Below the pieces are notes generated by a model. It searched no databases, had not been told where the DNA came from, and saw only the letters and a program-made list of their open reading frames with translations. This document shows, one piece after another, positions 9,321 to 22,072 of a stretch of 64,000 nucleotides of DNA; position 1 is the first letter of the stretch; every line of letters begins with the position of its first letter. Both the position numbers and the translations under genes were made by a program. Source of the DNA: an uncultured Eubacteriales bacterium (lineage in GTDB: Bacteria > Bacillota > Clostridia > Oscillospirales > Oscillospiraceae); NCBI GenBank assembly GCA_900079765.1, contig LT599017.1:3176996-3240995 (forward strand), in the 5' to 3' direction.

Positions 9321-12300
9321 CTAGATCAGTGCTGTGATGCCGGAGACGGTTTGGCTCACAGTTTGAAAGCGCATCAAAATAGCGCTAATCTGCGCACGCG
9401 TTGCCGCGCCCTGGGGTGACAGGGTGGTCGAACTCACGCCATTGATCAGCCCCTCCCCGACAGCCCAGTTCATGGCGTCCACAGCGTAGTCGCTGATCGC
9501 ACCGGCATCGGTAAATGCCTTGAGGTGATCTGTCTCATCTTTTTCCGCTCCGCTGTAGCGGTACAGGATCGTGACGATCTGTTCCCGGGTGACGGTCATT
9601 TCGGGCGCGAACAGGGTATCGGATATCCCCTTGACCACGCCGCTGCTCGCCGCCCAGATCACAGCATCGGTGTACCAGGTGCTGCCCTTCACGTCGGCAA
9701 AGGGGTTTGCCAGGTCCTTTACGCCGGGATTGCCCGCCACACGGTATAAAATTGTAACCAGCTGATCGCGGGTCACGGTGCCATCTACATCAAAGCGGGT
9801 CTCGGACACGCCCTTCATGTAGCCGCTGGAGATCATGAATTTCACAGCCTCATAGTACCATGCGTTTCTGTCCACATCGGCGTACTTCTCCTCGGGGCTG
9901 ACAGCGGCGGCGGCCAGAGCGGCCTTTGCCTCCTTCACAACAGCCTCGACCGCATTGACGTCGGCGGCGGCGGTGATCTTCGCGCGGTAATCCCTCAGAA
10001 CATCTTGGATCACGGCTTTCTGCGAATCGTCGGCCTCTTCCGTCAGCTTTGCGGCGTAGTCGTCCAGCTCGGTCAGGGCCTGGCTCTTCTTCTGCGCCAG
10101 CACAGCCTTGGGCGTCGGCTGAGAATTTCCGCTGTCAGGCTGCTGGGGGGCCTCCGTCTTCACAGCGGCCAGCGCGTCGTCGATCTGCCGCTGGGTCGCC
10201 GCACGATCCAGCAGCACCGCGACAGCGTCGGGGTTCAGGCCCGCGGGGGCGGCCTCCACCGCGGCATCCAGCGCGGTCTTGTCCGTCTTGTCCCTGAACA
10301 GTTTCACTTTCGGCGTACCCAGGAAGCTCTCGTCCACCACGCTGCCGTCGCCCTTGATTTTCGCGGCGTACAGGCTGGGATCAGCCAGAGGGCCGGAATC
10401 GTAAGCATAGGCGCCATATACGCCGTCCGTATTGTCCATCGCAAATACGATGGCATAGTAGGTGTCGGCCTCCAGGGTCACAGGCTCACCGAAGGTCAGG
10501 GTGTTGGCGCCGCCGTTGACCACGTCCTCCACCTTCAGGCGCGCGGTTGCGATCACCCCGTCCAGGGTTTTCTTGTCGGCCTTCAGCGTGTGGATACTGA
10601 TGAGGACGTCCCCCCACGGGGCAGTGAGCTTTTTCAGATTGACCAGGATCTTGTTGAAGGTGACGGCCGCATCGCCGGTCCTGATCGTGCCGTAGCGCAT
10701 CCGCTGGTCATCCCTCTGGCCGAAGGTGGGGTCTTTCATGAAACTCACGTTGGTGTAATAATCAAAGACCACATCATAGGTCCTCAGCTCCACCAGCCCT
10801 TCGACTGCGGCCCTGATCGCCGCGGCAGCCTGCCCGAACTCGGCGGCGGTGCCGTTCTTCACCACTGCCTCAGCGGCCTCAATGGCCAGTTTCAGAGCCT
10901 TCGCGGTGGAGGTGACGTACTGGGTCTGATCCACGTTCTTGCCTTCTGCTATTACCTGCTCCAATTCCTGCCGCGCGTCATCTCGTTCAATTTGGTCCGC
11001 AACATCGCGGACCATCTCGATGGTCACAGACTTGACGCCGGCGGGGATATGGACCGCACCGGCTGCCACGTCATAGGTGCAGCCAACAGAGACGGAGTCA
11101 ATGTTGTCCACCAGAGCCAGCAGCTCCAGGCTGACAGCATTCTCCAGCGTGTCGCCGGTCAGGGTGAAGGTGATGGTCTTATCGTCGGTCTCCATCTTAA
11201 AGCCGATGCGCTTGCCGGCGTTGCACAGCCAGTTGGAGATCTCGATCTTCTCGCCGTCGCCGTTAAACTCCAGGGGCAGGCCGCGGCCCGCGATGATGGA
11301 ACCGTCACCCTTCTCCGCCAGGAACGAATCAAGCAGGACCTTGGTGGCGGTGGACTGGCCCCACATATGCTGGCAGGAGCCGCCTCCGCCATTGGAGGAC
11401 GCGCGATCCCACAGGTTGGTCGTTTCATCGGGGTAGGCAACGCCTTCCCACCAGCCGTACAGGCCGCTCATGGAATTGTTGATCATCCACAGATAGGACT
11501 CAATCCCACCATCGCGGTACTTCTCGCCACTCAGGGCCGCGGAGAAGTAGCCCGCGTTGTACGAGGAGGAGTAGAACCCATGGGGATAGCCGCCCATGTT
11601 GTAGGGGGAGTCGAATACGGCGCTCTTCTGCGCGATAATGTAGTCGTAAGTGGCATCGGTCTGATCCAAAAGCCAGGTATTCTGGTCAGCGCCAAACAGA
11701 TAGCCATCCCAGTTCCAGCGGCCGAACAGGTAATGCGCGCCCCAGTTGCCGTCACGGATATCACTGCGGGCGGACAGCTCATTGGGGACGACCATGCTGA
11801 TGGGGATGTAGCTGAAGTCATACTTCTTCATGGTATCGGCCAGAACCGCTTCCATGCTCTTGAGCAGGCTGTCGTACTCAGCCTTCGCCCAGTCAGACTC
11901 GGTCTTGTACTTTTCCTCATCAGTGAGGGCAAACAGCTCATCGCAGAGATACGAATAGGTCGTCAGGCCAAACAGAGCGGCCCAGTTGTCGATGACCCAG
12001 TAGCCATTGGAATCAATTGCGTTAGTAATTTTCATGATGCGGGCTGGTTTTCCGTCCTCATCCAAGATATTCCCGTAGACTACGCGCTCAGAGGCAATCT
12101 TGTGGGTATTGGTCTTGATACCGGCTTTCCCCCCTACATCCTCAAAGAAGGACATAACAGTCGCGGAATCGCCGGTCTTCTGCAGGTAAAGCGCAAAGGG
12201 CCAGGAGAACTTCCAGGCGGCATCGGGGTATTCAATGTTCTTCAGGATGTGCTGTGCGTAGTCAGCGAAATGCTCGGTGTGGCCGGACTCGATCAGGGAG

Positions 12301-14408
12301 GCTAGCATGCCGATCACGTCATGGTCAAAGACACGGTCGTAGCCGTTCTCGCCAACGTGCAGCTCGTAGTCGTCGGAGATGATCAGCATGTAGATGTACC
12401 CCGCCTTGTAGGCGTCGATCAGCTCCTCATACTTCGCGGGGATCGACTGGATATCAACCAGATTTGCCAGGCGGTCGTTCCAGTAAGTCTTCATATGGTC
12501 ATAATGTGCATCCCAGGAGCCCTGCGCCGCCAGAACCTCATCGGCCGGCCATGCGTAGTCTCCGCCGAAACGATCGGCACCGATGCAGTAGTCGCGCACC
12601 ACGGTCTTGCCGGCTTCGACCGTCATGGCGTTGGCCGCCGCATCACTCAGCGCGACCAGGTCGGTGCTGACCCTGGGCAGAAGTTTTGTCTCCTCGCTCT
12701 TGTTCGTTGTGGTCATGCGGGAATATGCAATCTCGTATTTTTTCCCGTCAATTACCACCAGATCGGAGAAACTTTCCACCTTGTGCGCCATGCCGTTCTT
12801 CTCATACTCGCTGACGAAACAGGGCAGATAGCCCTCAGCATTGTACCAGGAGACAGACTTCGCCCCAAGGCTGGTGACGCCAAAGGTGACGATCTTGTTG
12901 CCGTTGTCGCGCAGCTTATAGGTGCCGTCGATCCAGGCGATGGGCGCGTCCTTGTCGCCCTCCCAGCCGAAGGAGGCGGTCATGCCGGAGGCATAGGTAT
13001 TGGCGTAGTTGCCGGACGCCTGAGCGCCCTCCACCGCCTTAATGGCTTTCATCAGCAGCACATACTCCAGGTAGGCCTCCAGATTGGAGGGGTGCTCGCT
13101 CTCGGTAACAGCCCTGGCGCTATCCAGCGCCTTGGTCAGCTGCGCGGTGAAGTATTCACTGATATCCTCATTCAGCCACGCCGAGCCGGCCCTTACAGCC
13201 TCCTCCAGCAGCGCGACGTAATCGAGCGTGGTGTCCATCTCAGTGGTACTCAGGGCAACACCGCCAATAGACATGTTGCCGTCTTTATGCGCCTTACTGA
13301 CCAGCTTGCCATACACCTGGATGGAGGTGTTGGGCGCAACGGTAACCGTGTACTTCAGTAATTTGGAGGTGCCGCCGGCAGCCAGCTCGCTGTTGCCGTA
13401 AATAGGTTTCGCGGTATCGCCATTGGCATAGATATAGATCTCTGCGCTGGCCTGCCAAATACCGCTGACGAAGGTCAGCGTCTGGATGTTATCGGTTGCG
13501 GGCACCTCCAAAACCCATGCGGCCTCTTCGGTCACCTGACCTGTGGTGATGCCGCTGTAGCTCAGAACGCCGCCGGTCTTTAAATTTGCGGCGGACAGGG
13601 TGGGGACGCCGTCAGACCAGCTATAAGTAACCGCGGAGTCGCCCATGGTACTCTTCATTGCCAGCCCGCCGACCAGCTCAAAATGCAGGATACCAACAGG
13701 CTCCGGGTCGGGAAAATTACCGATCTTCACGCTCAGAGAGGCCGCGGTGTTCTCAGCGTTCCAGTTTTCAGCTGCCGCGTCCGTGATCTTCCCGCTTTCA
13801 AAGCTGGTGGTAGAGCTGCTCCACTCGTAGTAATTTTGGCCGCTCAGGGTCTTCTGTGTCATGGCAACGGCATAGGTGGTACCCGCCGTCAACTCAATGT
13901 CACCAAAATCCAGTTTCAGGGGCGTCTTGCTCACAATGTCGGCCGCGGGGATTTCGACAGTACCCAGCAGCACTCTATCGGTACTACTGTTAATCCGATA
14001 GAGCTTGGCAATCAGATCGCTGGGATCGCCTTTCTTGATCAGGGCAACCTCCAGGTCGACCAGAGCGCCGGATTTGGCGGGGGTGAAGGTCTGATAACGC
14101 CAAATCTGGTCCGCGGTTTGACCAAAGGTACGTCCGCTAGCCGCTGACGCATTCATGAAGTCGATAATATCGGGCAGCTCTTCCCCCGTGACATTCATCT
14201 TACGGTTCGTCTTTTCTGATGTAAAATGCATCCAGTCAGTGGTGCCAACCGCGGTCAGATCCATGGCGCCAGAAGCGGTTTCAACGCCAACTACCACATG
14301 GCTATTGTCGGTAACGACCTCTTCTGCCTTTGCTCCCATGGGGGCCATGAGCGGCAGCAGCAGGGCAAAGGCCATGACCACAGAGAGAATGCGCTTTGCT
14401 CTTTTCAT
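9321..14408 (-). CDS. Large SLH-anchored surface protein with six-hairpin glycosidase-like core
   Basis: 1695 residues. The signal peptide is MKRAKRILSVVMAFALLLPL with an AKA-type cleavage site near residue 28. Beta-rich N-terminal domains are followed by a helical FIVAR-like segment (about 395-465) and a core of about 470-1170. In the core, an apparent beta-sandwich leads into a Trp/Tyr/Gly-rich alpha-helical region (GNWGAHYLFGRWNWDGYLFG, YNMGGYPHGFYSSSYNAGYF, GGGGSCQHMWGQS) that resembles an (alpha/alpha)6 glycosidase. Next come a FIVAR module (about 1190-1240), a ligand-binding-like beta domain, a coiled segment and three SLH repeats (about 1510-1690) for attachment to cell-wall polymer. 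It is the last gene of the GH65/MalEFG-like operon, 45 bases after pgmB. It probably releases an alpha-glucoside outside the cell for import. I cannot assign a CAZy family. Confidence 0.8.
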   Translation of the reverse strand: MKRAKRILSVVMAFALLLPLMAPMGAKAEEVVTDNSHVVVGVETASGAMDLTAVGTTDWMHFTSEKTNRKMNVTGEELPDIIDFMNASAASGRTFGQTADQIWRYQTFTPAKSGALVDLEVALIKKGDPSDLIAKLYRINSSTDRVLLGTVEIPAADIVSKTPLKLDFGDIELTAGTTYAVAMTQKTLSGQNYYEWSSSTTSFESGKITDAAAENWNAENTAASLSVKIGNFPDPEPVGILHFELVGGLAMKSTMGDSAVTYSWSDGVPTLSAANLKTGGVLSYSGITTGQVTEEAAWVLEVPATDNIQTLTFVSGIWQASAEIYIYANGDTAKPIYGNSELAAGGTSKLLKYTVTVAPNTSIQVYGKLVSKAHKDGNMSIGGVALSTTEMDTTLDYVALLEEAVRAGSAWLNEDISEYFTAQLTKALDSARAVTESEHPSNLEAYLEYVLLMKAIKAVEGAQASGNYANTYASGMTASFGWEGDKDAPIAWIDGTYKLRDNGNKIVTFGVTSLGAKSVSWYNAEGYLPCFVSEYEKNGMAHKVESFSDLVVIDGKKYEIAYSRMTTTNKSEETKLLPRVSTDLVALSDAAANAMTVEAGKTVVRDYCIGADRFGGDYAWPADEVLAAQGSWDAHYDHMKTYWNDRLANLVDIQSIPAKYEELIDAYKAGYIYMLIISDDYELHVGENGYDRVFDHDVIGMLASLIESGHTEHFADYAQHILKNIEYPDAAWKFSWPFALYLQKTGDSATVMSFFEDVGGKAGIKTNTHKIASERVVYGNILDEDGKPARIMKITNAIDSNGYWVIDNWAALFGLTTYSYLCDELFALTDEEKYKTESDWAKAEYDSLLKSMEAVLADTMKKYDFSYIPISMVVPNELSARSDIRDGNWGAHYLFGRWNWDGYLFGADQNTWLLDQTDATYDYIIAQKSAVFDSPYNMGGYPHGFYSSSYNAGYFSAALSGEKYRDGGIESYLWMINNSMSGLYGWWEGVAYPDETTNLWDRASSNGGGGSCQHMWGQSTATKVLLDSFLAEKGDGSIIAGRGLPLEFNGDGEKIEISNWLCNAGKRIGFKMETDDKTITFTLTGDTLENAVSLELLALVDNIDSVSVGCTYDVAAGAVHIPAGVKSVTIEMVRDVADQIERDDARQELEQVIAEGKNVDQTQYVTSTAKALKLAIEAAEAVVKNGTAAEFGQAAAAIRAAVEGLVELRTYDVVFDYYTNVSFMKDPTFGQRDDQRMRYGTIRTGDAAVTFNKILVNLKKLTAPWGDVLISIHTLKADKKTLDGVIATARLKVEDVVNGGANTLTFGEPVTLEADTYYAIVFAMDNTDGVYGAYAYDSGPLADPSLYAAKIKGDGSVVDESFLGTPKVKLFRDKTDKTALDAAVEAAPAGLNPDAVAVLLDRAATQRQIDDALAAVKTEAPQQPDSGNSQPTPKAVLAQKKSQALTELDDYAAKLTEEADDSQKAVIQDVLRDYRAKITAAADVNAVEAVVKEAKAALAAAAVSPEEKYADVDRNAWYYEAVKFMISSGYMKGVSETRFDVDGTVTRDQLVTILYRVAGNPGVKDLANPFADVKGSTWYTDAVIWAASSGVVKGISDTLFAPEMTVTREQIVTILYRYSGAEKDETDHLKAFTDAGAISDYAVDAMNWAVGEGLINGVSSTTLSPQGAATRAQISAILMRFQTVSQTVSGITALI

Positions 14409-15120: not shown

Positions 15121-17460
15121 TTAAAAGACCGTTTCCCGCTGTGCCGACAGCTCCATGGGGCCTCTAATGGTCTCCACCACAATGGGGGGGCCGCCATTGA
15201 AAACGCGCACCTGCTCTTGGGTCACGGTCACCTCAAGGGGATTCCCCTGCCAACAGAACCGATAGTTCAGCCGTTTCCACGCTCTGGGCAGGTGGGGGAC
15301 AATCCGCAGGGTGTGATTGATGACCCGCATACCGCCGAAACCCATGACTGCCGCCTGCCAAATCCCGCCCATGTTGGCACTGTGGATCCCGCCTTCGCTG
15401 GAATCCGGCTCCGGCCCCAGATCGGTCTCCGCGGCCCCCCGGAACATCTCATAGGCCTCCTCCATCATGCCCAGATCGCTGGCCAGGATGCTGTGGACTG
15501 CCTTGCTCAGAGAGGAATCGTGGAGCGTGCGGGGTTCATAGTATAGATAGTTCTTCCGGCGCAGATCGCCGGGGAAAAGCTCCTCGCGCAGGAACATCAA
15601 CTGCACCACATCCGCCTGCTTTGCAACCTGGAAATTGCGCAGCATCTGGAAGTTGTAGTCCTTCAGGATCTCACCCACGCTCTGGGCATTGCGGTAACAC
15701 GTCAAATCCAGCTGCCGCTGATCCATGTAGCCGTCAAATTGGGGCACGATACCACTTTCTGGATCAGGCTGGGGTAGATACATCCTGTCCAGCCGCTCCC
15801 GCAGCCGCTCCCGCAGACCTGCCAAGCCGATCTTGGCATCCAGCCTTTGACGGAGCTCCGGATTCTGATCCAGCCGATCCAGCGCCCGCAGACCCAGCTC
15901 CATGTTCCGTGCCGCCAGATAATTGGTATAGGCATTGTTGTTCACGTCAACCTGGTATTCATCCGGGCCAATGACATGGCGGATTTCATACCGGTTCTCA
16001 TTTTTGTTCCACTCCACCCGGCTGGACCAGAATCTCGCCGTCTCCAGCAGTATCTCAAACCCGCACCGCTCCAGGAATTCCATGTCGCCGGTGGCGTTGT
16101 AGTACTGGTGCACCGCAAAGGCGATGTCCGCCGTCACATGGTGCTCGATCTCGCCGGTCTCACAGGGCAGGATTTTGCCGGTCACCAGGTCTACACCCAG
16201 ATTGTCCGGGGTCACGTCCCCATCGTCTATCCAGGCCGATTCCCAGGGGTACATGGCACCCTGGTACCCTCTCTTTTGGGCCAGAGCCCTGGCGCCAGAC
16301 AAGGTCCAATACCGGTATTCCAGCAGGTTTTTTCCAACCTCCGGCCAGGTAAACAGAAAAAAGGGGAAAATAAAAATCTCTGTGTCCCAGAAAGAATGTC
16401 CCTTATAGCCCTCACCGCTCAGGCCCTTGGCGCCGATGCCCATACGGCTGTCCCGGTGATTGGTCATGATATTCAAGTGATAGATGGCAAATCGGATGGC
16501 AACCTGATCCCGCGTATCCTCCGAGTCCAGCTGTACATCGTGTCTCTCCCAAAACCGCGTCCAGACCTTGCTGCTGGCCTCCAGCACATCGGCGTAGCTA
16601 TTACCAATGACGCCTCTGAACCGCTCCAGGCTGTCAATAAATACCCGCTCATTCGCTTCCTGGGCCCTCAGCTCCCGGTATTCCATATCCCTGCCGGTGT
16701 AGACCGACGCCAATTTCTCCAGCACCAGAGTCTGACCGGCCTCTAAGCGGAGCGTATACTCCCCGCCCAGATATCGTCTGGAGGTCACGATCTTCATTGG
16801 AATGGATTCCTCCACCCCGTCCACCAGCAATCGGTGGCTTGCATGGATCATCACCTGAATTCCAGAGTTCAGAGTCCGGCAGGGATATTCCATAATGCTT
16901 CCATCATATACGCGGGCATGGCCCTCCACCGTGTGCTGGGTGCCGGAGTTGGTCACCCGACCATCGATGCCGCTGGTGATGACCACTTCCACACTCTTAT
17001 CTGTTGTAAGGATCACCTGGGAGTCCAGCAAATGGACATCCGACATAGATACCGTCCGCCGCCAGGTCATTTTCAGCGTGGCGCCCTGCGGGCTTACCCA
17101 GCAGACCTGCCGCGTCGTTTCACCGTTGTAGAGGTTCAGTTTCTGGCTGTAGGTTTCCACCTGGCCAATCAGCATAGAAAAGTTCTGCCCGGCGATCCGC
17201 AGGCCAATATTGGTGACGTCCGGCAAGTTCGGCAGCTCAGACACCTCACTGTCATGAAACCGGTCAAAGGTACCGGATACAAACAGGTTCCGGGTCTGTC
17301 CCTCGTACTGCTCATCCAGAGCAGCGCGCTGCCCCAGATAGCCGTTACCCTGGGAAAAAATCGCTTCGTACTTTGCCATGAATTCTGGATGAAAGGTCTG
17401 TTCCTCCAGGATCCAGCCCGAAGCCATATTGGCGGTCAGCGCACCGTCCTGTGCCGTCAT
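15121..17460 (-). CDS. GH65 disaccharide phosphorylase (alpha-glucoside, beta-Glc-1-P forming)
   Basis: 779 residues from the ATG at 17460, which has GGGAGG upstream. It is full length for GH65. The N-terminal super-sandwich domain is followed by an (alpha/alpha)6 barrel with GEGYKGHSFWDTEIFIFPF, then HHVTADIAFAV, then VIGPDEYQVDVNNNAYTN, in which Glu501 is the expected catalytic acid, and a C-terminal phosphate-binding region (SSEGGIHSANMGGIWQAAVMGFGG). These enzymes split alpha-linked glucobiosides with phosphate to beta-glucose 1-phosphate. The GPDEY version of the motif fits trehalose- and kojibiose-type members better than maltose phosphorylases (GPNEY), but specificity is set by loops I cannot judge. 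It is cytoplasmic and encoded between the importer and pgmB. Confidence 0.9.
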   Translation of the reverse strand: MTAQDGALTANMASGWILEEQTFHPEFMAKYEAIFSQGNGYLGQRAALDEQYEGQTRNLFVSGTFDRFHDSEVSELPNLPDVTNIGLRIAGQNFSMLIGQVETYSQKLNLYNGETTRQVCWVSPQGATLKMTWRRTVSMSDVHLLDSQVILTTDKSVEVVITSGIDGRVTNSGTQHTVEGHARVYDGSIMEYPCRTLNSGIQVMIHASHRLLVDGVEESIPMKIVTSRRYLGGEYTLRLEAGQTLVLEKLASVYTGRDMEYRELRAQEANERVFIDSLERFRGVIGNSYADVLEASSKVWTRFWERHDVQLDSEDTRDQVAIRFAIYHLNIMTNHRDSRMGIGAKGLSGEGYKGHSFWDTEIFIFPFFLFTWPEVGKNLLEYRYWTLSGARALAQKRGYQGAMYPWESAWIDDGDVTPDNLGVDLVTGKILPCETGEIEHHVTADIAFAVHQYYNATGDMEFLERCGFEILLETARFWSSRVEWNKNENRYEIRHVIGPDEYQVDVNNNAYTNYLAARNMELGLRALDRLDQNPELRQRLDAKIGLAGLRERLRERLDRMYLPQPDPESGIVPQFDGYMDQRQLDLTCYRNAQSVGEILKDYNFQMLRNFQVAKQADVVQLMFLREELFPGDLRRKNYLYYEPRTLHDSSLSKAVHSILASDLGMMEEAYEMFRGAAETDLGPEPDSSEGGIHSANMGGIWQAAVMGFGGMRVINHTLRIVPHLPRAWKRLNYRFCWQGNPLEVTVTQEQVRVFNGGPPIVVETIRGPMELSAQRETVF

Positions 17461-17495
17461 TGGCAATCCTCCCTAAATTCTATATCGATGGGCCA

Positions 17496-18355: not shown

Positions 18356-19261
18356 TCACGCATCGGAATCACCGATACGGAATGCCTTATTCACAGCCAC
18401 AAGGACAATGATACCGAAAATAAACATCACAACGCCGATGGCGTTGGCAAAGCCGTAGTTATAGTCAGAAATGGCCCGCATCATCAAAACAGAAAGGCTC
18501 ATGGTGTCGGCGCCGGGACCGCCGGAAGTAGTCAGCGCGATCGCCTCATACATGGCGATCCGGGAGGTGATGGAGCAGATAATCGCGGTGCCGATGGAGT
18601 TATGGCACAGCGGCAGATAGATATGGCGGATCAAATGCCAGCCGGAAGCCCCATCCAGCTTTGCGGCCTCTGTCAAGCTGGGAGAAATGGCAACCAGATC
18701 GTTATACACGATCAAGGAGACCACGACGGAATAGAACAGCCAGGTAAAGGTCACCGCCCAGAAGGCATAGGGCGATTGGAAAAACCACTGGACCTGGAAT
18801 TCTGGAAGCAGATTCCGAATCAGCACATTGACGGCTCCCACATCGTTACTGAGCAAAAACCGGAAGATCAACGCAACCGCAGCGGGAGAAATGACGTTGG
18901 GGATCATGAACACCGCTCTGCTCAACTGCCAGCCCGCAGGCCTATAAAACCAGATGAACGCCATGATTACGCCATACCCCACATGGAGGGTCATGGCGAT
19001 AACGGCCCAGTACAGCAGGTTCTTCAAAGAGATGCTCGCCGCGCTGTTGCTAATGAGTCGAATGTAATTATCGATTCCAACAAAGGAGGGCTCATTAAAG
19101 CCGTCCCACTTGGTGAAGGAAGTCCGAACAAGGACGAGGATAGGCTCTGCATAGAACATTAGGAAAACGACCAGCGTGGGAAACAGGAACAGATAGACCC
19201 ACTTAAAATATCTGCGTTCCAAACGGCCGTATTGCATCGGAGGGGAGGCTCTCATTTTCAT
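18356..19261 (-). CDS. Carbohydrate ABC permease, MalF-like
   Basis: About 301 residues from the ATG at 19261 (MKMRASPPMQYGRLERRYFK), chosen for the AAGGAG site seven bases upstream. A longer open frame to 19315 would start inside the upstream stem-loop. It has six membrane segments and the EAA motif (EAAKLDGASGWHLIRHIYLPL). It forms the CUT1 permease pair with the MalG-like protein. A hairpin separates it from the substrate-binding-protein gene. Confidence 0.92.
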   Translation of the reverse strand: MKMRASPPMQYGRLERRYFKWVYLFLFPTLVVFLMFYAEPILVLVRTSFTKWDGFNEPSFVGIDNYIRLISNSAASISLKNLLYWAVIAMTLHVGYGVIMAFIWFYRPAGWQLSRAVFMIPNVISPAAVALIFRFLLSNDVGAVNVLIRNLLPEFQVQWFFQSPYAFWAVTFTWLFYSVVVSLIVYNDLVAISPSLTEAAKLDGASGWHLIRHIYLPLCHNSIGTAIICSITSRIAMYEAIALTTSGGPGADTMSLSVLMMRAISDYNYGFANAIGVVMFIFGIIVLVAVNKAFRIGDSDA

Positions 19262-19284
19262 GGTTCTCTCCTTGCGCTGATTGT

Positions 19285-19313
19285 GGAAGTGGGCAGGAGA
19301 CCTGCCCACTTCC
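19285..19313 (-). other. Stem-loop after the sugar-binding lipoprotein gene
   Basis: Perfect 13-base arms (ggaagtgggcagg / cctgcccacttcc) with a 3-base loop between the binding-protein gene and the permease genes. No T-run follows. It fits an element that protects the upstream binding-protein mRNA, as known for malE-malF. Confidence 0.7.
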
Positions 19314-19333
19314 AAATATCAAACTGTTACTTA

Positions 19334-20704
19334 TTACTTGGTCTCCAGCGCCTTAACGGTCAGGTCGTTGCAGAACTGCTCGGGAGTCATAACGCCGTTC
19401 ACCAGTTGGACCAGGTCGGCAGCAAACACCTGCTCAGCGACAGATGCGGGCATGATGGTGGCAACGTTGGGGACGATAACGGTGTCAGCGGTGACTGCCG
19501 CCGACTGCTCGCTCAGCAGGGAACTCTCGTTCAGCTTGCTCAGAAAACCAGCGCTGTAGGTCATCTTGGGGCACTGGCCGCCTTCAATCAGCATGAAGGT
19601 CTCCAGCTCCTCCTGGGAGTACAGGAACTCGATGAAGGCCAGCGCGCAGTTCAGCTCAGCCTCAGACTTGTAGTTATTGGTCACAATCCACCGACCATAA
19701 GCGGCGGTACTGGCCAGAGCAACGTTACCGGGGTAGACATCGCCGTGAACGCTGGCACCGTTGAAATTGTTGCTCCACTTAGTAGCCGCATCGGCGGTAA
19801 ACTCGCCGTTCATCCAGGGGCCGTTGCAGATAACTGCAGCCTGGTTGCTCATGAAAGCGTTGGCAGCGTCAGCATAGGCAGCGCCCAGAGAATTGGGGGC
19901 GGCGTGATCGGCCCAGATGGCCTTCAGCTTGGTCACAGCGTTAATTAAACAGGGCTGATTGTAGTCGTATAGTTTCTGCCCATCGTACTCAGTCAGCAGC
20001 TCTTTGCCGCCCTCTTCGTTGGCAATCAGAGCGGACAGGAGGAGCATGGACGTCCACGCGTTGTCAACGGTCTGGAACGCGAACTTGTTGTCGCCCATCT
20101 CGGCAATCAACTCATCGATGGTCATGTCGGCAATTTTTTTGCTGGGGGTGAACAGGTCGGTGTTGTAGAACAGGCCGACAGTCGGGGTATAGACGGCGGG
20201 AACACCGATGACGTCGCCGCTGTCCAGAGTGCTGAACGCCATGGAGGAATCCAGGCACAGGTCGTTGATAGTTTTATGCTCTGCCAGGAAATCGTTCATG
20301 GGGTAATACAGGTTCTGGGGAACCAGCACGGTATTGACGAAGTCAGCAGTGGTGGAAGGGGCGCCGCTGACAATCAAGGGCAGGTTGCCGGTCCGCGCCA
20401 ACATAGACAGCTGGGGGAAGTACTCGTCCTCGGAGATCTCCTCCAGAACGATCTGGTAAACGCCGGCATTTTGCTCGTTGAATCTCTTGACGGCGGGCTC
20501 AAAGTAGACAGCGCCCGCGTTCTCGCCAACCATATAGGAAGGGATGGTGATGGTGGTCACATCCACGGGGGTAGGGGCAGCCGTGTCTGTTGCGACAGGG
20601 GATTGGGACGCAGGGGGGGCGCTGGTTGTGGTGCCGTCGGTCGTGCATGCGGCAACACCAAGGGCCATGGACAGAACCAGTAGCAATGCGATAAGCTTTT
20701 TCAT
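19334..20704 (-). CDS. Carbohydrate ABC substrate-binding lipoprotein (MalE/UgpB class)
   Basis: 456 residues. The lipoprotein signal MKKLIALLLVLSMALGVAAC has its acylated Cys at residue 20, followed by a Thr/Ser/Pro linker. The mature sequence has extracellular sugar-binding family features, such as FYNTDLFT, FMSNQAAVICNGPWMNGEF and GRWIVTNNYKSEAELNCALAFIEFL. It is the first gene of the importer-GH65-pgmB-SLH operon and lies next to a LacI-family gene. It should bind an alpha-glucobioside or short oligosaccharide produced at the surface; the ligand is not known. SD GGAGG. Confidence 0.92.
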   Translation of the reverse strand: MKKLIALLLVLSMALGVAACTTDGTTTSAPPASQSPVATDTAAPTPVDVTTITIPSYMVGENAGAVYFEPAVKRFNEQNAGVYQIVLEEISEDEYFPQLSMLARTGNLPLIVSGAPSTTADFVNTVLVPQNLYYPMNDFLAEHKTINDLCLDSSMAFSTLDSGDVIGVPAVYTPTVGLFYNTDLFTPSKKIADMTIDELIAEMGDNKFAFQTVDNAWTSMLLLSALIANEEGGKELLTEYDGQKLYDYNQPCLINAVTKLKAIWADHAAPNSLGAAYADAANAFMSNQAAVICNGPWMNGEFTADAATKWSNNFNGASVHGDVYPGNVALASTAAYGRWIVTNNYKSEAELNCALAFIEFLYSQEELETFMLIEGGQCPKMTYSAGFLSKLNESSLLSEQSAAVTADTVIVPNVATIMPASVAEQVFAADLVQLVNGVMTPEQFCNDLTVKALETK

Positions 20705-20792: not shown

Positions 20793-20810
20793 AAGCCCCC
20801 CAAAAGGAAT

Positions 20811-20840
20811 GGGCGAAAACAGTACATATTGTTTTCGCCC
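20811..20840 (-). terminator. Inverted repeat after the LacI-family gene, probable terminator
   Basis: Perfect 10-base arms (gggcgaaaac / gttttcgccc) and a 10-base loop, 13 bases beyond the stop of the regulator gene on the minus strand. The T-tract is weak (attccttttgg), so termination may be partial. Confidence 0.55.
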
Positions 20841-20853
20841 AAAGTACCTTAAA

Positions 20854-21873
20854 TCAGTGATGAAAGCCGACGCTTTCGGATCTAACCACCGTATATGGGA
20901 TCAGCCGCTGGCGTGGAACTCGTCTGCAATCGATGATTGCATGGAGCATCTCAGCCGCTGCATACCCTTTCTCCTCCATATTCTGATTGATTGTTGTAAT
21001 TGCAGGATCGGTCAGGCTGGCGATATGCAGCCCGTCAAAGCCGGTCACTGCGAAGTCTTTGCCCGTCAGATAGCCACTCTTGCGTATGGCGTTACTTGCA
21101 CCCAGGGCAATCAGGTCACTGGCGCACATAAATACGGACGCGCCGTCGGTCCCATGCTGCGCGATGTATTCAGAAACGATCTCCTGCGCTCGCTCGGCGT
21201 TAAAATCTGTATAATAATTTTCTTCCAGGGTCAGGTTTCGGCTCCGAAGGGCTTTCTCCAGGCCAGCCAAGCGCCGGGCACAGACAGTCGCGTTCCGTCG
21301 TCCGTTTAAGAACACCACCCGCTTATGATTGTGGCTCAGAACCAGCTCTGTCATTTCCGCAAAGGCACCCTCATCGTCGGTGCCCACATAGCCTATGTTC
21401 TTACCCTCTACCAACACGTCCACCGTGACACAGGGAGTTTGGGAACTCTTCAAATTCTCGTAGTACGCATCAGTTGTTTTCAGGCCGAAACACATAGCGC
21501 CAGTCAGACTATGCTCTCCACAGAACTGCTCAAAGCTCTTTTCCTTCTGCTGTTCTGACGACAAGACATAAACCGCAAATTCCATATCGTGGGTAATCGC
21601 ATATCTACAGGCTCCACGGAGCATCTTGATTACCAGCTCATCGGTCAGACCCCTGTCTGCCATGAATCCGGCGAGGATGATGGCCATGGTCTGACAGCCC
21701 TTGCCCGACAGGCGCTTTGCATTCAGGTTCGGAACATACCCAAGCTCCTTGGCCGCTGCCAAGATCGCCTGCTTTGTCTCCTCCCGGATATCACTGTATC
21801 CATTGAACGCTCTAGATACTGTACCAACCGATACACCTACAGCCTTGGCAACATCTTTAATTAAAACCGCCAC
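20854..21873 (-). CDS. LacI-family regulator of the GH65 sugar operon (GTG start)
   Basis: 339 residues from a GTG at 21873, which has GGAGG seven bases upstream. An apparent ATG at 21915 would encode the operator itself and is unlikely. The helix-turn-helix is LIKDVAKAVGVSVGTVSRAF, followed by a periplasmic-binding-like effector domain with VTGFDGLHIASLTDPAITTI. It lies directly upstream of, and in the same direction as, the MalE-like gene. Matching palindromes sit before both genes, which suggests repression of the operon and of itself. The effector is probably the imported glucoside or a product of it. Confidence 0.92.
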   Translation of the reverse strand: MAVLIKDVAKAVGVSVGTVSRAFNGYSDIREETKQAILAAAKELGYVPNLNAKRLSGKGCQTMAIILAGFMADRGLTDELVIKMLRGACRYAITHDMEFAVYVLSSEQQKEKSFEQFCGEHSLTGAMCFGLKTTDAYYENLKSSQTPCVTVDVLVEGKNIGYVGTDDEGAFAEMTELVLSHNHKRVVFLNGRRNATVCARRLAGLEKALRSRNLTLEENYYTDFNAERAQEIVSEYIAQHGTDGASVFMCASDLIALGASNAIRKSGYLTGKDFAVTGFDGLHIASLTDPAITTINQNMEEKGYAAAEMLHAIIDCRRVPRQRLIPYTVVRSESVGFHH

Positions 21874-21884
21874 AGCCGCTCCTC

Positions 21885-21897
21885 CAAAACGTTTTTG
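21885..21897. promoter_or_regulatory. LacI-family operator overlapping the regulator's ribosome-binding site
   Basis: caaaacgtttttg, with a perfect 10-base core aaaacgtttt, immediately upstream of the GGAGG (21881-21885) of the regulator gene. This position, close to the start codon, suggests autorepression. Confidence 0.6.
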
Positions 21898-22072
21898 TAA
21901 GCTAAATGTTAACATCTTTTTACTTTGTATTCAATTAGCGTTACTTACAACATTTTATAGGGAAATTTATGCATATTCACAGAGCCGCGTCGCTGCCGCC
22001 TGCAAACTTTCGAGCCATATTCGGATAGAATCCCTTATCTTTCTACCCCGTACAATCAGCAAGAACCCCTTT

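What the first reader, a model, noticed from the sequence alone, without database searches (positions are those of the whole stretch)
9321..14408. SLH-anchored giant protein with an unassigned six-hairpin-like catalytic core
The core (about residues 470-1170) has an apparent beta-sandwich followed by an aromatic, glycine-rich helical region that resembles the (alpha/alpha)6 glycosidases and phosphorylases, yet I cannot place it in a known family. It is the terminal gene of an operon devoted to an alpha-glucobioside (GH65 and pgmB), so it likely provides the disaccharide at the cell surface.
Basis: partly seen in the sequence, partly recalled or inferred. Interest (0 to 1): 0.6.

Follow-up and report, generated by a model that had tools for sequence, protein, structure and literature searches.

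The report
Unassigned surface sugar-cutting enzyme family
A gut-type bacterium (Clostridia) carries on its surface a large protein whose core is a sugar-cutting enzyme of known overall shape but of no known family; relatives in distant bacteria repeatedly sit beside the same sugar-import and sugar-splitting genes, so it probably frees an alpha-linked disaccharide outside the cell for uptake.

Summary
The gene is on the minus strand, 14408 to 9321 (1695 aa), last in an operon SBP-permease-permease-GH65-betaPGM-core. Three C-terminal SLH repeats are clear and the genome has csaB. The core (residues 467-1134) matches no Pfam, NCBIfam or PDB sequence, alone or as a 19-member family. AlphaFold2 gives beta-sandwich, (alpha/alpha)6 barrel, beta-sandwich (pTM 0.84). 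The family is rare (usually under 1% of sampled genomes) but spans Clostridia and Actinobacteria. In six lineages it sits beside GH65 and sugar-ABC genes, usually with betaPGM. The window GH65 carries the published kojibiose-phosphorylase motif (EEAP). Best reading: a secreted inverting alpha-glycosidase, predicted acid D799 or D807 and base E988, releasing an alpha-1,2-linked glucobioside (kojibiose or Glc-alpha-1,2-Gal) for import and phosphorolysis. Substrate, linkage and catalysis are inferred, not shown. Linked arabinofuranosidase-like GH43 with alpha-glucan-type CBMs, and galactose genes in one genus, suggest a mixed glycan. Probably a new GH family within a known superfamily; CAZy itself could not be searched.

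The parts
9321..14408 (-). SLH-anchored protein, 1695 aa, with unassigned six-hairpin catalytic core
14325..14408 (-). signal peptide (residues 1-28, MKRAKRILSVVMAFALLLPLMAPMGAKA)
   Evidence: read from the sequence
14154..14303 (-). first part of the family's N-terminal accessory beta-jelly-roll domain (residues 36-85)
   Evidence: phmmer to uninterrupted copies in relatives; fold from relatives
13704..14153 (-). choice-of-anchor-R-like domain (residues 86-235) lying inside the accessory domain
   Evidence: NF041539 26.7 bits against cut-off 30; relatives lack it at this place
13215..13703 (-). second part of the accessory domain (residues 236-398)
12516..13010 (-). core N-terminal beta-sandwich (residues 467-631)
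11316..12515 (-). core (alpha/alpha)6 barrel (residues 632-1031)
11007..11303 (-). core C-terminal beta-sandwich (residues 1036-1134)
12012..12014 (-). D799, candidate general acid (loop helix 5-6)
   Evidence: invariant in 19 members and kept in a divergent paralog; role inferred
11988..11990 (-). D807, alternative candidate general acid
   Evidence: role inferred
11445..11447 (-). E988 in WWEG, candidate general base (loop helix 11-12)
   Evidence: role inferred
10299..10751 (-). second choice-of-anchor-R-like domain (about residues 1220-1370)
   Evidence: 28.8% identity to the first copy, E 1e-4
9339..9890 (-). three SLH repeats (residues 1507-1690)
   Evidence: PF00395
14453..15085 (-). 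beta-phosphoglucomutase
   Evidence: TIGR01990 234.8 bits over cut-off 189.4
15121..17466 (-). GH65, kojibiose-phosphorylase-type motif EEAPEN
   Evidence: motif from PMC8537180
17496..18359 (-). sugar ABC permease 2
18356..19315 (-). sugar ABC permease 1
19334..20704 (-). sugar ABC solute-binding protein
20854..21915 (-). LacI-type regulator upstream; terminator-like hairpin at 20810-20841 separates it from the operon
   Evidence: 61% identical to the LacI beside the Pseudobutyrivibrio homologue

Best explanation
The protein is a secreted, SLH-anchored glycoside hydrolase of a family not yet in Pfam or NCBIfam. Its core is a six-hairpin glycosidase unit that probably works by a single-displacement (inverting) mechanism, with an aspartate of the helix 5-6 loop (D799 or D807) as acid and E988 of the WWEG motif (helix 11-12 loop) as base. 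It acts at the cell surface on an alpha-glucosyl-containing glycan and releases an alpha-1,2-linked glucobioside (kojibiose, or Glc-alpha-1,2-Gal), which the ABC importer takes up; GH65 splits it with phosphate into beta-Glc-1-P plus a sugar, and betaPGM turns beta-Glc-1-P into Glc-6-P. Shown here: domain anatomy, operon, conserved linkage, sequence isolation. Predicted here: fold. Inferred: catalytic residues, hydrolysis rather than phosphorolysis, product and substrate.
For: Fold: pTM 0.84 model; top fold matches are glycosidases and glycoside phosphorylases. Residues D799, D807, E988 and H1014 are invariant in 19 members and kept in a paralog with about 35% identity. Linkage to GH65 and sugar-ABC genes in six lineages: window; L027/L028; L031; L061; L076/L077; L078. 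A betaPGM-type gene is also seen in all of these but L031 and the part of L078 read. GH65 kojibiose motif EEAP in window, L028 and L078 loci, the last 44% identical to CsKP (motif, PMC8537180); the W-E pair important for kojibiose recognition (PMC8626586) is also kept in L076/L077. Linked GH65s keep the phosphate-site SSLS, so they should be phosphorylases. In Streptomyces, Catenulispora and Actinotalea a GDE-type alpha-glucosidase stands in GH65's place. Anchoring: SLH plus csaB.
Against: No activity data exist. Linked GH65s are of three motif types; the Actinomycetaceae ones (TQG) lack the kojibiose motif, so the product may differ between members. galK and galE (with galT in one genome) and GH43_26-like arabinofuranosidase-type neighbours hint at galactose or arabinose in the substrate. 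The acid/base assignment rests on conservation and loop position, not on a superposed active site; barrel loops have low pLDDT.
Confidence: 0.5

Rival explanations
1. Same enzyme class, but the released sugar is not an alpha-1,2-glucobioside: another alpha-glucobiose (nigerose, isomaltose) or an exo-acting alpha-glucosidase releasing glucose.
For: The linked intracellular enzyme varies: three GH65 motif types, or a GDE-type alpha-glucosidase closest to an amylo-alpha-1,6-glucosidase. CBM35/6 modules of the linked GH43 resemble those of alpha-1,6-glucosyltransferase, CITase, cycloalternan-forming enzyme and isomaltodextranase, so the glycan may be an alpha-1,6 type.
Against: The window, L028 and L078 GH65s all carry the kojibiose motif; an importer plus phosphorylase would be pointless if glucose were the product.
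Confidence: 0.25
2. The core acts on a heteroglycan carrying alpha-L-arabinofuranose and galactose, and the disaccharide is Glc-alpha-1,2-Gal (as on collagen-type hydroxylysine or other galactosides); GH65 yields beta-Glc-1-P plus galactose for the Leloir pathway.
For: In one Clostridia genus the operon runs on into GH43 (exo-1,5-alpha-L-arabinofuranosidase-type, 3akf, AtAbf43C) and galK-galE, with galT in G1818; GH43 neighbours also in L030 and L032.
Against: Gal genes seen in two related species only; the window operon has none; gal genes may be adjacent by chance.
Confidence: 0.15
3. The core is a glycan-binding or transglycosylating protein rather than a hydrolase.
For: A relative in the same order (G374, L015) has lost the WWEG glutamate and most barrel residues, so non-catalytic members may exist.
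Against: The window protein keeps every invariant polar residue of the family.
Confidence: 0.1

Closest known systems
GH65 kojibiose phosphorylase / kojibiose hydrolase (CsKP 3WIQ, FjGH65A 7FE3)
   Same: beta-sandwich plus (alpha/alpha)6 barrel plus C-terminal beta-sheet; likely the same alpha-1,2-glucoside pathway
   Different: No detectable sequence similarity; secreted and SLH-anchored; keeps an invariant Glu where a hydrolase base would lie
GH94, GH95, GH78, GH63, GH15 and other six-hairpin glycosidases
   Same: Fold; Foldseek E 1e-9 to 1e-3, Z 18-23
   Different: 6-14% identity, no family stands out, no profile match
Flavobacterium johnsoniae dextran utilization locus (FjDexUL, PMC10316084)
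   Same: Surface attack on an alpha-glucan coupled to a GH65 acting on kojibiose units
   Different: FjDexUL uses GH66, GH31 and GH97 enzymes with surface binding proteins and a GH65 hydrolase; here an unassigned family with an ABC importer, GH65 phosphorylase and betaPGM
SLH-anchored multidomain polysaccharidases of Bacillota
   Same: Signal peptide, catalytic core, accessory beta-sandwiches, helical linkers, SLH triplet
   Different: Core and accessory domain are not described in Pfam or NCBIfam

Membership tests
Six-hairpin ((alpha/alpha)6) glycosidase superfamily | (alpha/alpha)6 barrel | tested here: met
   Predicted model with pTM 0.84, twelve barrel helices; fold matches Z 18-23
Six-hairpin ((alpha/alpha)6) glycosidase superfamily | Conserved acid and base carboxylates in the catalytic loops | tested here: inconclusive
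   Invariant D799, D807 and E988 in loops 5-6 and 11-12; geometry not measured, no assay
GH65 | Match to GH65 N, central or C-terminal Pfam models | tested here: not met
   None of 19 members matches at E up to 10, whereas the neighbour GH65 scores 1.9e-119; hhalign to it gives probability 0.2%
GH15, GH63, GH78, GH94, GH95 as held in Pfam | Match to the Pfam profile | tested here: not met
Any CAZy GH family without Pfam, NCBIfam or PDB representation | dbCAN/CAZy profile match | not testable with these tools
   No CAZy profiles available
SLH-anchored surface proteins | SLH repeats plus signal peptide and csaB in the genome | tested here: met
   PF00395 2.9e-30 with three repeats; TIGR03609 over cut-off; signal peptide read
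Kojibiose phosphorylase (window GH65) | EEAPxx motif at CsKP positions 64, 392, 394, 402, 416, 585 | tested here: met
   EEAPEN
Kojibiose phosphorylase (window GH65) | Phosphorolysis of kojibiose | not testable with these tools
   Needs an assay

The most novel reading that the evidence does not exclude
The core founds a new glycoside hydrolase family whose members cut an outer-surface glycan to release an intact alpha-1,2-glucobioside (kojibiose or Glc-alpha-1,2-Gal), supplying the extracellular source of kojibiose for kojibiose phosphorylase pathways in Clostridia and Actinobacteria.
Probability: 0.35. Interest if true: 0.65.

Novelty: new variant of a known kind. Interest (0 to 1): 0.5.

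Why it matters
Where kojibiose phosphorylases get their substrate in nature is poorly known (general knowledge). A rare, sequence-isolated surface enzyme family recurrently linked to kojibiose-type GH65, betaPGM and sugar importers gives a direct handle: express the roughly 670-residue core, find the glycan, and a new GH family and a new degradation route can be defined. The set of invariant residues makes the mechanism testable by a few point mutants.

Tried and rejected
Pfam, NCBIfam and PDB profile searches for the core, singly and as an alignment: nothing. Plasmid and viral collections: nothing. hhalign of the core family to the neighbour GH65: nothing. Broad genome tallies to find richer neighbourhoods: mostly empty, showing rarity, until a class-level profile search gave the g534 genus. 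The idea that the core is a divergent GH65 paralog is rejected on sequence. Promoter and terminator scans: near chance level overall; only the 12-pair hairpin at 20810-20841 is used, as weak support. Literature searches found no paper describing this family. The accessory domain is a jelly-roll like many CBMs (best Z 9.2) but no CBM family stands out.

Full report
Observation. The ORF at 9321-14408 is on the minus strand and encodes 1695 aa with a Sec-type signal peptide. Three SLH repeats lie at residues 1507-1690 (PF00395, E 2.9e-30), and the genome has csaB above the curated cut-off and about 50 other SLH places, so SLH anchoring is normal for this organism. The gene is the last of an operon on the minus strand: solute-binding protein, two permeases, GH65, betaPGM, core, with gaps under 50 bp or overlaps. 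The GH65 and betaPGM assignments are solid (PF03632 1.9e-119; TIGR01990 above cut-off).

Family. The core (467-1134) has no Pfam, NCBIfam or PDB-sequence match. A scan of genome contigs with its likely conserved part found 21 relatives: Kribbella, Actinoallomurus, Actinomadura, Actinotalea, Scrofimicrobium, Ancrocorticia, Streptomyces, Catenulispora, Kutzneria, Butyrivibrio, Pseudobutyrivibrio and others. Identity over the core is 39-53% by BLAST. Two clades appear: long proteins with two tandem N-terminal accessory domains, and short ones; the window sequence sits on a long branch with the first. The 19-member alignment also has no match in PDB sequences (E up to 10), Pfam or NCBIfam. The family is rare: only the window's own genome in 200 of its family, 3 of 345 in the order, 1 of 398 in the phylum, 1 of 346 Actinobacteria, 1 of 250 in the Butyrivibrio family, 2 of 121 Streptomyces, 5 of 283 in the class; these tallies include the genome on which each search was centred.

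Fold. AlphaFold2 on the alignment gives mean pLDDT 78.5 and pTM 0.84: beta-sandwich (core 1-165), twelve-helix barrel (166-565), beta-sandwich (570-668). Foldseek and VIA-align return GH94, GH95, GH65, GH78, GH15, GH63, GH52, GH116 and GH127 enzymes, Z 18-23, 6-14% identity, with no family standing out. So the six-hairpin fold is supported and the family is not assigned.

Catalytic residues (inference). Of the invariant acids, D231, D263, D333, D341 and E522 (core numbering) persist in a divergent third paralog of Ancrocorticia, whereas E221, D225 and D435 do not. E522 (full E988, WWEG) is in the loop between barrel helices 11 and 12, and D333/D341 (full D799/D807) lie in the helix 5-6 loop. 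From general knowledge of inverting enzymes of this fold (GH15, GH63) these are the places of base and acid. An invariant glutamate at the base position suits a hydrolase rather than a phosphorylase.

Neighbourhoods. Relatives recur beside LacI regulators and sugar ABC genes. GH65 plus sugar-ABC genes are linked in the window, L027/L028, L031, L061 (SBP-GH65-perm-perm-LacI-HAD-core paralog), L076/L077 (core-SBP-perm-perm-GH65-betaPGM-DUF4432-GH43, then galT in one genome, galK and galE) and L078 (SBP-perm-perm-GH65-core). With one to a few GH65 genes in genomes of 2.6-5.6 Mb, chance linkage within 10 kb is about 1-2% per lineage (my estimate), so six lineages of about 14 is far beyond chance. 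In Actinotalea, Catenulispora and Streptomyces a GDE_N_bis/MGH1-like alpha-glucosidase takes that place.

Which sugar. De Beul et al. (PMC8537180) give EEAPxx at six positions as the kojibiose phosphorylase signature. Numbering was checked on CsKP (E64, E392, A394, P402). The window GH65 reads EEAPEN, L028's EEAPWN, L078's EEAPWK; L076/L077 read EESP; L031/L061 read TQG. All keep SSLS, the serines of the phosphate site (PMC8626586), so they should be phosphorylases. This favours kojibiose or another alpha-1,2-glucoside in most lineages. Against a pure glucan: the linked GH43 proteins are closest to exo-1,5-alpha-L-arabinofuranosidases (3akf; 9nxg = AtAbf43C, PMC12493170), and gal genes follow in one genus. 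For a glucan: the CBM35/CBM6 modules of those GH43 proteins are closest to those of a GH31 alpha-1,6-glucosyltransferase (1.9e-55), cycloalternan-forming enzyme, CITase and isomaltodextranase. The natural glycan is therefore open.

Accessory parts. Thirteen long relatives carry two tandem copies of a roughly 190-residue domain predicted at pLDDT 94.8 as a beta-jelly roll of CBM type without a clear family. The window protein has one copy, interrupted at residues 86-235 by a choice-of-anchor-R-like domain, of which a second copy follows the core. A similar module seems to precede the core as a separate domain in L076 (read from its sequence), so the window arrangement looks like a fusion or insertion.

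Verdict. It is best called a probable new GH family inside a known superfamily, pending a CAZy profile check.

Noticed in passing
window 13704-14153 (residues 86-235): A choice-of-anchor-R-like domain lies inside the accessory jelly-roll domain; in 13 relatives the same domain is uninterrupted and tandemly duplicated.
   Followed up: partly
L015:658-3288 (G374): A relative in the same order (876 aa, C-terminal membrane segment) keeps both flanking beta domains but has lost the WWEG glutamate and most barrel residues; possibly a non-catalytic descendant.
   Followed up: partly
L016:1318-1629 (G290): Short decayed remnant of the core family (68% identity over 31 residues), apparently a pseudogene.
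   Followed up: partly
L034:11329-14217: GH32 gene beside the Ancrocorticia core homologue is split into two ORFs: frameshift or assembly error.
   Followed up: no
L030:13598-18344: Butyrivibrio locus has a solute-binding protein, ATPase and two RbsC-like permeases beside the core and GH43; this resembles furanose importers (YtfQRT/GafABCD, from general knowledge).
   Followed up: no
L026:1067-3145, L035:5407-7584, L039:5497-7794: GDE_N_bis plus MGH1-like enzymes replace GH65 in actinobacterial loci; no NCBIfam name for the two tested; specificity unknown.
   Followed up: partly
G1529:C2:586217-587517 (L067, L068): A distant Streptomyces relative of the core (E about 1e-26) split over two reading frames.
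   Followed up: no
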